A stretch of 64,000 nt of DNA from Bacteriovorax sp. MedPE-SWde (GTDB lineage: Bacteria > Bdellovibrionota > Bacteriovoracia > Bacteriovoracales > Bacteriovoracaceae): positions 310,001-374,000 of the forward strand of contig MPCU01000004.1 of NCBI GenBank assembly GCA_001874305.1, given 5' to 3'. This document shows positions 21,098 to 33,457 of this stretch, one piece after another. Position 1 is the first letter of the stretch, and every line of letters begins with the position of its first letter. The notes beneath the pieces are model-generated. The model was given only the letters and a program-made list of their open reading frames with translations. It searched no databases and was not told the DNA's origin. The position numbers and the translations under genes are program-made.

Positions 21098-21571
21098 ATG
21101 AAAAAATATATTGTTTTAATACTATCTGTACTTAGTACGTCTGCTTTTTCTTACGATAATAACGGATGTGAATCGATTAAGAATTTAGCGTATAAGTGTA
21201 ATCAAATAATTTCATTATCTGGCCAAGATCGAAATATTTCAGACGTTGAAGTCTGTATTGGTTCTGGTGGACTTCAAAGTGAAATGTATCTAACTTCTGA
21301 AAATCTTTCTGACGATATATTCAACTGGAAAAAAAGAAATATTACTAATGTTATAAAGAACAATAGTAAAGTACTTAAACTAAGAGATAAGTCTAAATCG
21401 ATAACTGGCTGTATTCTTAACCCTGGGTCTGCTTGTTACCGTGAAGAAGTAGCCGTGTTAGATAAAGAAGCAATGACACTTACTTTTGATTTGAAGTTTT
21501 CAACAAGTAAGTTCTTTCTTGGTGGCTGGACAAATGATGTGTCTTTAAAGTTATCGTGTGAAAAGCTCTAG
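21098..21571 (+). CDS. Small secreted protein of unknown function
   Basis: 157 residues with a clear signal peptide (LSVLSTSAFSYD). The mature part has six cysteines (CESIKNLAYKC; EVCIG; TGCI; SACYREE; LSCEKL) and ends in a beta-rich segment (TMTLTFDLKFS). No family recognised. ATG follows AGGAG by 8 bases. A weak stem CTAGT-TCAT-ACTAG (21568-21581) with a later T6 may end transcription. Confidence 0.65.
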   Translation: MKKYIVLILSVLSTSAFSYDNNGCESIKNLAYKCNQIISLSGQDRNISDVEVCIGSGGLQSEMYLTSENLSDDIFNWKKRNITNVIKNNSKVLKLRDKSKSITGCILNPGSACYREEVAVLDKEAMTLTFDLKFSTSKFFLGGWTNDVSLKLSCEKL

Positions 21572-22171: not shown

Positions 22172-22624
22172 ATGAAATTACTTTTGATTATCTTTTCACT
22201 TTTTTCACTAAATACATTCGCCTTTGAAGAGTGCCAGAATCTCCTATCTGATTGTGAGTACTACACATGTATTAATAAAATCAAAAAATGTGGAAAGCGC
22301 TCATATTTCGAGAGCTTTGGTAGAAAGTATTGTCATAAGTTTGCGAAATGGGAGCATAAATTTTCCTCACAAGGAAAGAACTGGATTGAGGACACTAAAA
22401 CTTGTCTCATTACTAGTATAGATGAACTTGAAGAAGGCCTTAACTGTAAGCAGTTTAAAAGGGCCGCCGTTTCTCAGCATGTCCCTTGTTATATAAATTC
22501 TGGATATTGTGAGCTTTCAAACAAAGATAAGGCAAGAGTCACAGCAACAGTGATTGCAACAATGTGGCGACCTGACTTAATAAAAGCAGCAATGCAAGTT
22601 CTATCATCATGTAGGAAGAAATGA
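22172..22624 (+). CDS. Secreted cysteine-rich protein with stanniocalcin-like cysteine pattern
   Basis: 150 residues from ATG 22172, where a signal peptide (LLIIFSLFSLNTFAF) begins; no Shine-Dalgarno is visible. Ten cysteines (21, 28, 33, 40, 54, 78, 92, 106, 113, 147) are spaced 6-4-6-13-23-13-13-6-33. Vertebrate stanniocalcin-1, recalled from memory, has 8-4-5-8-23-15-13-6-34. Shared positions include CxxF...FxxQGK (54-69), the C at +23, CxxFxR (92-97) and CY-x5-C (106-113). In animals these are secreted glycoproteins that inhibit the metalloprotease pappalysin. The stop overlaps the next start (ATGA), so it is translationally coupled to a zinc-protease gene. Homology is my inference. Confidence 0.6.
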   Translation: MKLLLIIFSLFSLNTFAFEECQNLLSDCEYYTCINKIKKCGKRSYFESFGRKYCHKFAKWEHKFSSQGKNWIEDTKTCLITSIDELEEGLNCKQFKRAAVSQHVPCYINSGYCELSNKDKARVTATVIATMWRPDLIKAAMQVLSSCRKK

Positions 22625-23568
22625 TCTTAAGTCGTCTTATACTCTTATTTCTCATTACCTTTCACGTATGTGCATCTGTCTTAATTAATATAGAAGATAG
22701 AAATCAAACTCTGACTAAATCAGAAAAAAGCTTCCTAGAATTAAGTATTAGAAATGCTCACGCACATTTTCAAAAAATCATACCGACTGATTTCCCTATA
22801 AATATTTTAATAAATCCTCAAAATTGTTTTAGGACAGGATATAACTACAATAAGAAAGTAATCAATTTCTGCTCAAGTAAAAGTACTTTAAGAATGGGGA
22901 TAAACTCATTAGATATAATTCATCACGAAGCATTCCACTATTTATTATGTCGATCTCTTCCTGATTTTTGTAACGAGAATATGATTGGAAATATACATAT
23001 TCAATCTATCCACGAAGGACTTGCCGATTACTTCTCTTATCAGTTGTCACCAGATAATTTCTTTGGAGAGAATTATAGAATAGACTTCCCTTTTCTAAGA
23101 TTTTATAAGAATGAGCTTTGCTACAATCTTGTATCGACACCTCATTTGAAAGGTAGCGCACTTTCCTCGTTTCTTATTAAAAATAACTATAATTGGAAAG
23201 ATATTATTAGCTTTATTAAGGAAGGTTCTAAACTAGGAAGTTTCACTAAATCTGCATGTTTCTTAAGGTCTACGGAACAGACGATATTGACTCCAAGAAG
23301 TAGAAAACTGAGCAAATCGAATCGCTACTGGATCAATAAGGGTGAGGATATTGTTTTCGAATTCAAAGTTGCCAAGAAAATATTAAAGCACTTTAAAGAA
23401 GTAAAGTTCAAAGTAAACCATAGTTCAGATCTATTTAGCTATAGGCTTACTTCAGACACTCTCACTTTTTCTTCGAAAGGCCCAACAGGTTTTAATAAAA
23501 TAATAGTAGATATTTACTCTCATGAACTCAAAATTGGCGAAGTAAAACTTTATCTTGGTGTGAGATAG
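22621..23568 (+). CDS. Secreted zinc metalloprotease-like protein (HExxH, gluzincin type)
   Basis: 315 residues with a signal peptide (LILLFLITFHVCASV). The zinc motif HEAFH (His102, Glu103, His106) follows DIIH, and HEGLADYFSY (Glu132) supplies the likely third ligand, the gluzincin arrangement. The enzyme-like part is about 30-210; the C-terminal 80 residues are beta-rich and could bind substrate. Six cysteines suggest disulfides. It overlaps the stanniocalcin-like gene by 4 bases, so the two are made together. The substrate is unknown. Two other proteins in this window (25219-25956 and 32523-33389) share the HExxH...EGxADYF layout. Confidence 0.75.
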   Translation: MILSRLILLFLITFHVCASVLINIEDRNQTLTKSEKSFLELSIRNAHAHFQKIIPTDFPINILINPQNCFRTGYNYNKKVINFCSSKSTLRMGINSLDIIHHEAFHYLLCRSLPDFCNENMIGNIHIQSIHEGLADYFSYQLSPDNFFGENYRIDFPFLRFYKNELCYNLVSTPHLKGSALSSFLIKNNYNWKDIISFIKEGSKLGSFTKSACFLRSTEQTILTPRSRKLSKSNRYWINKGEDIVFEFKVAKKILKHFKEVKFKVNHSSDLFSYRLTSDTLTFSSKGPTGFNKIIVDIYSHELKIGEVKLYLGVR

Positions 23569-25218: not shown

Positions 25219-25956
25219 TTAAAACAGTTCTCTATACCAACAGGACGGTCTTTTCCCTCCGGATGAAGAGAATGTCATTTGAAAGTTAAATGTCTTATAT
25301 GAGTTACTAGAAATTGCCCCAGCAATAAATGTATCGAGACGACACTGAGGATTATTCTGATACAAGTAAGTTAATGGAACTTTAAAAGTGTCGACACTCT
25401 CAAAGGAGATATCTTCAAAGCCTCCAATAACTTCTAATGCTTCTTTTGAGACTATTGAAAGAGCTTGGCACGTTTTTCCAACACAGCCTCGAACAGTCAA
25501 TGACCTTATATCCTCTAAAGCTATTTGGTCATGGATCGATTCGATTTCATTAACGTCAATTAATCGTTTCATACAATTCTTAGTCGTAAAATAGTCTGCT
25601 TGCCCTTCTGTTGATATCTTTCTATTGTCTCCGGCAAATTCTATGACATATGGAGCACCACCAACAATATGACCAAGCTCGTGACAAAATAAATTATACA
25701 AGTGCGTTTTTTTAAGATTAGGAAGATCAAGTAAGCTCGAAGATATATATAGTTCACGGGGCCTAGTAGAGCTCATCGCGGCAACTGAAGTAATTTCTTC
25801 ATTAGTCCAAATAACCTTTACGGTTTCATCTAAATCTTTTAACTCTTCAAAGAAAGCAATATTAACATCTTTCCAAGCAGAGAGAATTTCTTTCTTATCC
25901 ATAGAATAAGATTTAAAAGAAAAAAGTATTAGTAGTACTGTTACAAACTTTAGCAC
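25219..25956 (-). CDS. Secreted HExxH metalloprotease-like protein
   Basis: 245 residues from GTG 25956 (GAGG five bases upstream). Signal peptide LLILFSFKSYSM. Zinc motif HELGH (His92, Glu93, His96) followed by VGGAPY, and TEGQADYF (Glu117) as third ligand. The C-terminal QCRLDTFIAGA...RPSCWY is shared with the protein at 32523-33389, so the two are paralogues. Cysteine pairs suggest an exported, disulfide-bonded protein. The substrate is unknown. The start overlaps the stop of the upstream desaturase by 1 base. Confidence 0.75.
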   Translation of the reverse strand: MLKFVTVLLILFSFKSYSMDKKEILSAWKDVNIAFFEELKDLDETVKVIWTNEEITSVAAMSSTRPRELYISSSLLDLPNLKKTHLYNLFCHELGHIVGGAPYVIEFAGDNRKISTEGQADYFTTKNCMKRLIDVNEIESIHDQIALEDIRSLTVRGCVGKTCQALSIVSKEALEVIGGFEDISFESVDTFKVPLTYLYQNNPQCRLDTFIAGAISSNSYKTFNFQMTFSSSGGKRPSCWYRELF

Positions 25957-31242: not shown

Positions 31243-32526
31243 ATGAAAACTCTATATATTTGCGTAAAACATGATGGCCTAGATAGTCTTTTAGAAATGG
31301 CCCTTTCAGGCCATAAAGAACTTCAAGTCTTCATGGAAAAAGATACTGCTTCCCTAATGAATACAATCGACTTTATCGGAGTACCACAACTTCTCATTGT
31401 GGATGAAGACCACTACTCTACACTTGATCAGTCAAAGCTGAATGCAATCCCAAAGAAAATTCTCTTTAATAAGACAAATAGTGTTGTTCCAGATTGGGAC
31501 TGCTTTGAAAAATCCTCATGGCAAGAGGTCTGCAAAGGAATTGTAGATGAGCTTGATGCTACAGATGAGCCTCTTGAATACTCAACAGTTCCATTTCACT
31601 TACTAAAGTCTATCGAGACTCCTGTCTGTGATATATATTTAGAGATTACCAAAGATGGAAAACCACATCATATCAAGCTATTTCACAAGAATGAAAAGAT
31701 TGATTTAGTGACAGTAGAAAAGTACCTCGACAAAGGTGTATCCCACGCAAATATCTTAACTGATGATAAATTACAATTTCTCAATACTATATCTAATAAC
31801 CTGTACTCTCAAATGATAGAGAGTCCAACAGAACAAGTTGTAGGAAAGTCCCTAGATGTATCCATAACATTACTAAAAGAAATAGGTTTTAACTCTACTT
31901 CTACTCAGCTGCTAGACGGCGTCATTGATAATATAAACAAGTCTCTGACAAAGAAGAAAGGAAAAGATCTAAGTATAATTAAAGATCTTCTAAACTCTAA
32001 ATCCTCTAGGTATTACAAACTTGCAAACCTTACGTCTCTACTCTCTATGAGGATTTTACAAATGTCTTCCTGGAGTACCCATACGCATCAAGAAATTTTA
32101 ATCTACACGGCACTACTTGGTAATGTCACTCTCCCAAAAGAAGAGATGATTTTTATTACTGATGAGCAAAACCTTTTAAAGTCTAGCTTTAGTGATGAAG
32201 AAAAGAAGAATATTTATCATCATGCTTTAGATGCATTCAATCTTGTTCAGGCCGATAAAGACAAGCCTCAAGATGCCGATATGTTTATATTAGAACATCA
32301 TGGAAATAAGACAGGGGTTGGATTTTCTAGTCAGTTATCCACACAAAACCATAAGTTGATTATTATATTTAGAATTTGTGAAGACTTCTCTATCGAGCTT
32401 TTAAAGAGAAAAGAAATGAATGAAGCCATTAAGCTTAAAGAGATATTTCAATTCTTATATTCAAAGCACGATAAAAAAATCCTTCACCAAACAATTGATC
32501 TTCTAAAGAAGTGTTTTATAAATTAA
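31243..32526 (+). CDS. Degenerate HD-GYP-like protein with receiver-like N-terminus
   Basis: 427 residues. The N-terminal 110 residues look like a receiver fold (LYICVKHDGLDSLLEMA...QLLIVDEDHYS) without the usual Asp pocket. The C-terminal part follows the HD-GYP plan: TSLLSMRILQMS...IYTALLGNVTLP where active enzymes have LLHDIGK, and LEHHGNKTGVGFSSQL where they have HHE-x-x-D-G-x-G-Y-P. The metal ligands are thus mostly lost, so it probably binds rather than cleaves cyclic di-GMP, or has another role. No Shine-Dalgarno before the ATG. Confidence 0.58.
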   Translation: MKTLYICVKHDGLDSLLEMALSGHKELQVFMEKDTASLMNTIDFIGVPQLLIVDEDHYSTLDQSKLNAIPKKILFNKTNSVVPDWDCFEKSSWQEVCKGIVDELDATDEPLEYSTVPFHLLKSIETPVCDIYLEITKDGKPHHIKLFHKNEKIDLVTVEKYLDKGVSHANILTDDKLQFLNTISNNLYSQMIESPTEQVVGKSLDVSITLLKEIGFNSTSTQLLDGVIDNINKSLTKKKGKDLSIIKDLLNSKSSRYYKLANLTSLLSMRILQMSSWSTHTHQEILIYTALLGNVTLPKEEMIFITDEQNLLKSSFSDEEKKNIYHHALDAFNLVQADKDKPQDADMFILEHHGNKTGVGFSSQLSTQNHKLIIIFRICEDFSIELLKRKEMNEAIKLKEIFQFLYSKHDKKILHQTIDLLKKCFIN

Positions 32527-33389
32527 TAAGACTCTGGAGAGAACCAACACAGTGGTCTTGCTCCAGGTTGTCCCCTGTCTCTAATACATGCACCTATTGA
32601 GTGGTCCGAGTTATCAAAATCGGAATACTTTTCTTCATCACATAGAAGACCTGCTACAAAAGTATCGAATCGACACTGAGGCTCAGGGTGCTTGTAGAAA
32701 GTATTATCAACAACGACCTTAGACTTCCCATTAACTTTAGGCGGATGCCAGTCATACTTTAATGAAGCAAATACTCTCCCTAAAGCTAAAGCTGCAACCG
32801 AAGTTCTCTTACAACTTTCACTCATACAAACTTTCTCAATTTCAGACATAGTCATCTTATCAGCGAAGTTAACTGATTTATTATCGTTATTTTCCTCAAT
32901 CAATTTCCTCATACACTTATTCGAAGCAAAGTAATCTGCCTGACCTTCAGCGGATGACCAACTTCTTCGAGTTGACTTACCTCTAAAGTTCTTTGGTGCT
33001 CCCCCATAGTGGTGTCCTAGTTCATGACACATAATTAGTAAGAGTGAATCAGGACTCATATCACGATGCCTAGCAAGGCCACCGTTGATAACGATTACTG
33101 GGTTATTATCATCATCACGAGTCGCATGGGCGTTAACCCTAGCTTCATCCCACAATCTTTCGACCTTAAGATCTTTTCCATACTTCTCTTTTACAATAGG
33201 TTTCCAAACTCTTTCAAATTGATCAATCACTTGATGAAATTGAAACTGAGCGATACCACCTCCACCAAAGGACTTTAGCCCTGTAGGGATTTTAACATTA
33301 TTTTCAGGAAAACAATTTTCAACCGCTAAACTATTTAGAGGAAGAAAGGCCATGGATAGAATGATTGAAATAAATGAAAGTTTTTGCAT
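32523..33389 (-). CDS. Secreted HExxH metalloprotease-like protein (paralogue of 25219-25956)
   Basis: 288 residues from ATG 33389, with AAGGAG five bases upstream (the GTG at 33395 overlaps that site). Signal peptide IILSMAFLPLNSLAVE. Zinc motif HELGHHYGGAP (His122, Glu123, His126) and AEGQADYF (Glu148). The C-terminus PQCRFDTFVAGLL...RPLCWF matches the paralogue. Eight or so cysteines. It is convergent with the HD-GYP-like gene, with 4 overlapping bases. The substrate is unknown. Confidence 0.76.
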   Translation of the reverse strand: MQKLSFISIILSMAFLPLNSLAVENCFPENNVKIPTGLKSFGGGGIAQFQFHQVIDQFERVWKPIVKEKYGKDLKVERLWDEARVNAHATRDDDNNPVIVINGGLARHRDMSPDSLLLIMCHELGHHYGGAPKNFRGKSTRRSWSSAEGQADYFASNKCMRKLIEENNDNKSVNFADKMTMSEIEKVCMSESCKRTSVAALALGRVFASLKYDWHPPKVNGKSKVVVDNTFYKHPEPQCRFDTFVAGLLCDEEKYSDFDNSDHSIGACIRDRGQPGARPLCWFSPESY

Positions 33390-33457
33390 ATGCACTCCTT
33401 GTTAAATAGTGACTATACTACTCGAATGCATAGTGCCATTTAGTCAAAAAGGTGTAC

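What the first reader, a model, noticed from the sequence alone, without database searches (positions are those of the whole stretch)
22172..23568. Bacterial stanniocalcin-like protein coupled to a secreted zinc metalloprotease
The 150-residue exported protein has ten cysteines spaced 6-4-6-13-23-13-13-6-33. Animal stanniocalcin-1, as I recall it, has 8-4-5-8-23-15-13-6-34. The central stretch aligns without gaps from CxxF through QGK to the next Cys, and CxxFxR and CY-x5-C are shared. Animal stanniocalcins bind and inhibit the zinc metalloprotease PAPP-A. Here the stop codon overlaps (ATGA) the start of a secreted HExxH...EGLADYF protein. This suggests a protease with its own inhibitor or chaperone, known so far from animals only as far as I recall. 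The protease here is of gluzincin type, unlike metzincin PAPP-A, so mechanism could differ.
Basis: partly seen in the sequence, partly recalled or inferred. Interest (0 to 1): 0.88.

Follow-up and report, generated by a model that had tools for sequence, protein, structure and literature searches.

The report
Bacterial relatives of stanniocalcin
A small secreted protein in predatory-type bacteria shares ancestry and fold with stanniocalcin, an animal hormone family thought to stand alone; the protease gene beside it here is probably a chance neighbour.

Summary
The 150-aa exported protein (22172-22624) belongs to a bacterial family found in 113 of 369 genomes of its phylum, and also in Myxococcota and scattered elsewhere.

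Three tests tie it to animal stanniocalcin (STC). A family profile finds only STC2 in the PDB (E=7e-6; next hit 0.75). PF03298 is hit by 23 of 30 members and by none of 10 Cys-preserving shuffles. An AlphaFold model (pLDDT 91) matches STC2 at Z=12.5 over 131 residues; the next unrelated fold scores 6.7. Eight cysteines are invariant in 120 homologues. C21 and C33 are usually lost together, as expected if they pair like C56-C70 of human STC2.

The protease coupling is not supported. The pairing occurs only in this genome, a same-genus relative keeps the protease locus without the STC gene, and HExxH neighbours are not clearly enriched. No PAPP-A-type (M43) protease was detected in the genome.

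New: nine diverged relatives in Burkholderiaceae and Acinetobacter sit beside VgrG with a signal-bearing gene downstream, as type VI effectors do. They keep a His that is invariant in the secreted family and is Gln in STC2. Function is untested; a secreted effector or binding domain is most likely.

The parts
22172..22624 (+). Exported 150-aa stanniocalcin-like protein, ten cysteines
22172..22222 (+). Signal peptide (about residues 1-17)
   Evidence: Read from the sequence; all 30 aligned relatives begin with a similar hydrophobic stretch
22478..22480 (+). His103 codon: invariant in 120 homologues, Gln in human STC2
22621..23568 (+). Secreted HEAFH...E putative zinc metalloprotease; start overlaps the stop of the previous gene (ATGA); adjacency not conserved

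Best explanation
The 150-aa protein is a bacterial member of the superfamily that includes animal stanniocalcins: an exported, disulfide-locked helical domain equivalent to the STC2 core (chain residues 47-184), without the C-terminal dimer cysteine and tail. This step is shown by sequence profile, predicted fold and cysteine pattern (about 0.95). It descends vertically in its genus and is a stand-alone gene whose position next to the protease arose, or was lost in relatives, recently (about 0.9). The mechanism is inferred (about 0.4). It most likely acts outside the cytoplasm as an effector or binding domain aimed at a macromolecule of a prey or competitor cell, with a functional face built around the invariant His103 and conserved aromatics. 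Diverged, largely cysteine-poor versions would do the same when carried by the type VI secretion spike VgrG.
For: Homology: the A2 profile against 177,635 PDB sequences hits only STC2 (7.4e-6, 7.5e-6, 2.5e-5; next 0.75); a wider 30-sequence profile from several phyla again hits only STC2 (1.5e-5). 23 of 30 members hit PF03298, best 1.8e-6, and single members pass Pfam's cut-off (24.4, 25.3, 25.7 bits against 23); cysteine-fixed shuffles give 0 of 10. Foldseek's four best hits are STC2, though none has E below 0.05; VIA Z is 12.5 against 6.7 for the next unrelated fold. Cysteines: eight invariant in 120 homologues; C21/C33 co-loss fits STC2 C56-C70. Distribution: 113 of 369 genomes of the phylum, 32 of 379 of a second phylum at E<=1e-18, 2 of 7 of a Flavobacteriales-titled order, a Cupriavidus chromosome. 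Vertical descent: groups with G012 and G057 of its own genus, support 0.88. Effector idea: nine VgrG-linked variants relate to the secreted family by profile-profile comparison (Prob 98.4, E 5e-15), and their model also matches STC2 best (Z 8.1 against 3.8). H103 and the Y107-type Tyr stay although the C106 and C113 equivalents are gone.
Against: The window protein alone scores 15 bits, below Pfam's cut-off of 23. I found no biochemical function for any bacterial member. H103 could be structural. The model of the VgrG-linked variant is weak overall (pLDDT 57.7) and was built with STC-like sequences in its alignment, which favours the STC2 match. The VgrG-linked gene could be an adaptor rather than the effector. 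Most secreted members show no link to secretion systems or toxins. Predatory lifestyle is inferred from taxonomy only.
Confidence: 0.65

Rival explanations
1. The STC-like protein is a general exported binder or inhibitor of an unlinked protein (a protease, a cell-surface protein or a metal-bearing ligand), working by exosite binding as STC2 does on PAPP-A.
For: Homology to STC2, whose known action is exosite binding (PMC9579167); stand-alone gene in varied neighbourhoods.
Against: No M43 protease detected in the genome and none of the five strong M43 genomes of the phylum has the STC-like gene; the PAPP-A-linking C120 and the dimer cysteine of STC2 are absent.
Confidence: 0.35
2. One reading: the STC-like protein is the dedicated inhibitor or chaperone of the adjacent zinc protease.
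For: Translational coupling ATGA; both exported; several other genera have some HExxH gene as direct neighbour.
Against: The pair is unique to this genome; the G089 locus has the protease without the STC gene; direct HExxH neighbours are 14 of 239 against 12 of 409 background, with 5 from one genus and 2 histidine-rich transporter-like ORFs.
Confidence: 0.08
3. The likeness to stanniocalcin is convergence on a cysteine-rich helical bundle, without common ancestry.
For: Identity in the structural alignment is only 14-15%; the single sequence is below the Pfam cut-off; Foldseek E-values are above 0.05.
Against: Profile matches extend over non-cysteine residues, and cysteine-fixed shuffles lose them; all PDB matches with E below 0.1 are STC2; Z stands far above unrelated helical folds.
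Confidence: 0.04

Closest known systems
Stanniocalcin-2 / stanniocalcin family (PF03298; PDB 8a7d, 8a7e, 7y5q, 8hgh)
   Same: Same order of ten core cysteines with near-identical spacing, same predicted helical fold (Z 12.5 over 131 residues), significant profile match, exported
   Different: Lacks C120, C197-C205, C211 and the chain beyond about STC2 residue 184; loop C40-C54 is five residues longer; has H103, Y45 and Y53 where STC2 has Gln, Leu and Ile; no PAPP-A-type protease detected in the host
Type VI secretion VgrG-linked effector-immunity gene groups
   Same: Diverged relatives lie downstream of vgrG and upstream of a gene with a signal anchor or lipoprotein signal
   Different: The window protein is exported by its own signal peptide and has no VgrG in the neighbourhood examined
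PAPP-A and other M43 pappalysins (STC targets in animals)
   Same: A zinc protease gene lies next to the STC-like gene in the window
   Different: That protease has an HEAFH...E arrangement of gluzincin type, not the HExxHxxGxxH of pappalysins; no M43 hit in the genome

Membership tests
Stanniocalcin family PF03298 | Profile score over the curated cut-off (23 bits) | tested here: not met
   Window protein 15 bits, E=0.017; but relatives L015 24.4, L018 25.3 and L126 25.7 bits pass, and 23 of 30 members hit
Stanniocalcin family PF03298 | Ten core cysteines in STC order and spacing | tested here: met
   6-4-6-13-23-13-13-6-33 against 8-4-5-8-23-15-13-6-34 derived from STC2; eight invariant in 120 homologues
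Stanniocalcin family PF03298 | STC disulfide pairing (56-70, 65-85, 76-125, 109-139, 146-181 in STC2) | tested here: inconclusive
   Co-loss supports only the C21-C33 pair; the model's S-S distances were not available
Stanniocalcin family PF03298 | STC helical fold | tested here: met
   AlphaFold model pLDDT 91.3; VIA Z 12.5, rmsd 3.6, 131 residues to 8a7d_P
Stanniocalcin family PF03298 | C-terminal intermolecular cysteine and tail (C211 in STC2) | tested here: not met
   The protein ends three residues after the last core cysteine, C147
Stanniocalcin family PF03298 | Inhibition of PAPP-A or a pappalysin | not testable with these tools
   No M43 hit in the genome; five strong M43 genomes in the phylum, none with the STC-like gene
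Protease-inhibitor or protease-chaperone gene pair | Conserved adjacency of the two genes | tested here: not met
   unique to this genome; same-genus locus without the STC gene
Type VI effector-immunity module (diverged relatives only) | Gene placed between vgrG and a signal-bearing gene | tested here: met
   L258-L260, L262 and L263 directly after VgrG; L265 after a VgrG split by a frameshift; L266 with an annotated VgrG further upstream; L261 has the same flanks, its ORF being masked in the list by an opposite-strand ORF; L264 has the downstream gene and a broken upstream reading. Not the case for the window protein
Type VI effector-immunity module (diverged relatives only) | Toxicity neutralised by the downstream gene | not tested
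   Needs the bench

The most novel reading that the evidence does not exclude
The stanniocalcin fold arose in bacteria as a secreted or type VI-delivered antagonism domain with an active site around the invariant His103 and conserved tyrosines. Animal stanniocalcins would be descendants that lost the His (Gln in STC2) and were turned into exosite-binding hormones.
Probability: 0.2. Interest if true: 0.93.

Novelty: new variant of a known kind. Interest (0 to 1): 0.8.

Why it matters
Stanniocalcin is a hormone family of animals with reported eukaryotic roots (Roch and Sherwood 2011; only the title was seen, in a reference list). When STC2 was solved, no protein of similar fold was found (PMC9579167). 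A bacterial family spanning several phyla, common in lineages known for predation, gives the fold a possible deep origin. It supplies well over 100 new sequences for judging which residues matter, and small proteins that should be easy to study. The VgrG-linked branch offers a direct test of whether the fold can be toxic.

Tried and rejected
Single-sequence PDB search with the window protein gave no STC hit; the profile was needed. A search of the own genome with PF03298 found nothing, because single copies score below threshold. A first scan of named genomes with the window protein alone found none. Alignment A1 was too diverse for the named-genome scan; A2 worked. Conserved neighbour genes: clusters follow genera only. 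Enrichment of HExxH neighbours looked promising (several different secreted metalloproteases, including a HELGHNLGLRH protein of up to 1,327 aa tail-to-tail in one genus) but falls to about background after collapsing by genus. A likeness of HxxCY to the phospholipase A2 motif HDxCY was considered and dropped: the Asp after His is absent. NCBIfam and PADLOC gave nothing useful. Fold search of the VgrG-linked model listed no convincing enzyme. A search for the VgrG-linked protein across a class returned nothing and is uninformative, as its centre genome lacks that branch. The one Bdellovibrio paper read (PMC12750041) was unrelated. Literature searches found no paper linking stanniocalcin to bacteria; subscription papers are not covered.

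Full report
WHAT IS THERE. Two ORFs overlap by ATGA: 22172-22624 (150 aa, signal peptide, ten cysteines) and 22621-23568 (315 aa, signal peptide, HEAFH and EGLADYF). All coordinates, lengths and spacings in the finding are correct, except that the shared motif is CxxFxK rather than CxxFxR.

IS THE LIKENESS TO STANNIOCALCIN REAL? Alone, the protein hits PF03298 first in all of Pfam but weakly (E=0.017, 15 bits, cut-off 23). Homologues occur in 38 of 95 genomes of its family. A profile of 20 of them, searched against all PDB sequences, returns only STC2 with E below 0.1 (7.4e-6 to 2.5e-5; next 0.75). Of 30 members, 23 hit PF03298; three of those looked at one by one exceed the cut-off. Ten members with cysteines held in place and other residues shuffled gave no stanniocalcin hit, while nine of the ten real ones did. 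An AlphaFold model from the family alignment has pLDDT 91.3. Foldseek ranks four STC2 chains first, with modest E-values (0.057 to 0.16), and VIA-align gives Z 12.5, rmsd 3.6 over 131 residues, with the next unrelated fold at 6.7.

CYSTEINES. In 120 homologues eight cysteines are essentially invariant; C21 and C33 vary together (both lost in 21, one lost in 7). The published disulfides of human STC2 are 56-70, 65-85, 76-125, 109-139 and 146-181 (PMC9780223 Table 1). Mapping by order puts C21 and C33 on 56 and 70. So the pair that the bacteria lose together is a bonded pair in the animal protein. The bacterial protein ends just after the last core cysteine; it has no equivalent of C120 (the link to PAPP-A) or of the dimer cysteine C211.

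DISTRIBUTION. The family is in 113 of 369 genomes and 51 of 182 genera of the phylum. Record titles of near relatives are Bacteriovoracaceae, Halobacteriovorax and Bdellovibrionales, so the window is most likely from a Bacteriovoracaceae-type bacterium (inference). One genome, G132, has a single contig of 3,782,950 bases, which I recall as the length of Bdellovibrio bacteriovorus HD100 (memory). Members also occur in a second phylum reached through a MAG titled Kofleriaceae, i.e. Myxococcota by that title (32 of 379 genomes at E<=1e-18), in 2 of 7 genomes of an order reached through a MAG titled Flavobacteriales, on the Cupriavidus necator UYPR2.512 chromosome and on an Alisedimentitalea plasmid.

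THE PROTEASE NEIGHBOUR. Of 40 loci with flanks, only the window's has the 315-aa protease. Homologues of the protease are in 7 of 125 family genomes, this one included. In G089, of the same genus, the order acetyltransferase - protease - PfkB kinase - BtpA-like - next gene is kept but the STC gene is absent between the first two. The tree places the window STC with G012 and G057 of its genus (support 0.88), yet those genes lie elsewhere. Immediate neighbours with HExxH make up 14 of 239, against 12 of 409 in other stretches of such genomes; two of the 14 are histidine-rich transporter-like ORFs and five come from one genus. No M43 protease was detected in the genome; the five strong M43 genomes of the phylum lack the STC-like gene. 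STC2 binds PAPP-A by C120 and by PAPP-A's C domain and leaves the active-site cleft accessible (PMC9579167), so inhibition of an unrelated small zinc protease does not follow from homology. I conclude that the adjacency is incidental; a recently formed functional link in this one species cannot be excluded.

AN UNEXPECTED BRANCH. The family profile also reached seven further Burkholderiaceae genomes weakly. These ~290-aa proteins have no signal peptide and have lost most cysteines, but keep the YY..YGYYYC, SxxGKxW and AFKTHPxAY motifs. They lie between a VgrG and a gene with a signal anchor (in L264 the upstream reading is broken). The same arrangement is on a Paraburkholderia plasmid; on an Acinetobacter plasmid an annotated VgrG lies further upstream and a lipoprotein-type gene directly downstream. 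Profile-profile comparison with the secreted family gives probability 98.4 and E 5e-15. A model is weak in the N-terminal half (mean pLDDT 57.7) but its best three matches are STC2 (Z 8.1, 8.1, 7.7; next 3.8); the alignment included STC-like rows, so this is supportive, not independent. H103 is invariant in the secreted family and its equivalent is invariant in the nine VgrG-linked variants; it aligns with Gln in STC2.

MECHANISM. Shown: export signal by reading, cysteine pattern, predicted fold, homology, non-obligate neighbourhood. Inferred: a role outside the cytoplasm, possibly on prey or competitors, with a functional site around H103. A general exported binder acting on an unlinked partner is nearly as likely. 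I do not file the protein as a stanniocalcin in the strict sense, because the Pfam cut-off (for this protein) and the dimer cysteine were tested and not met; it belongs to a new bacterial branch of the same superfamily.

Noticed in passing
L258-L264, L265:4992-5873, L266:4968-5864: Diverged stanniocalcin-like proteins beside VgrG with a downstream signal-bearing gene (BNR-type repeats by eye), in Burkholderiaceae and Acinetobacter: candidate type VI effectors.
   Followed up: partly
G000:C10:116753-117166 (L071:6596-7426), outside the window: The same genome carries a second, longer stanniocalcin-like protein (276 aa), 16 bp downstream of a secreted HEIGHAIYAQ protein; the arrangement recurs in two other genomes of the genus.
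   Followed up: partly
L036, L091-L094: In one genus the longer stanniocalcin-like gene lies tail-to-tail with a protein of up to 1,327 aa carrying the metzincin motif HELGHNLGLRH.
   Followed up: partly
25219-25956 (-) and 32523-33395 (-): Two exported proteins with HELGHxxGGAP...EGQADYF, a metallopeptidase-like family with relatives near stanniocalcin-like genes in other genera (cluster 31).
   Followed up: no
L239, L246-L250: Members from the second phylum (Kofleriaceae-titled) carry an extra cysteine-rich N-terminal stretch of about 100 residues, often with a lipoprotein-like signal.
   Followed up: no
21098-21571 (+): Small exported protein with six cysteines just upstream of the finding, without a significant Pfam match.
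   Followed up: no
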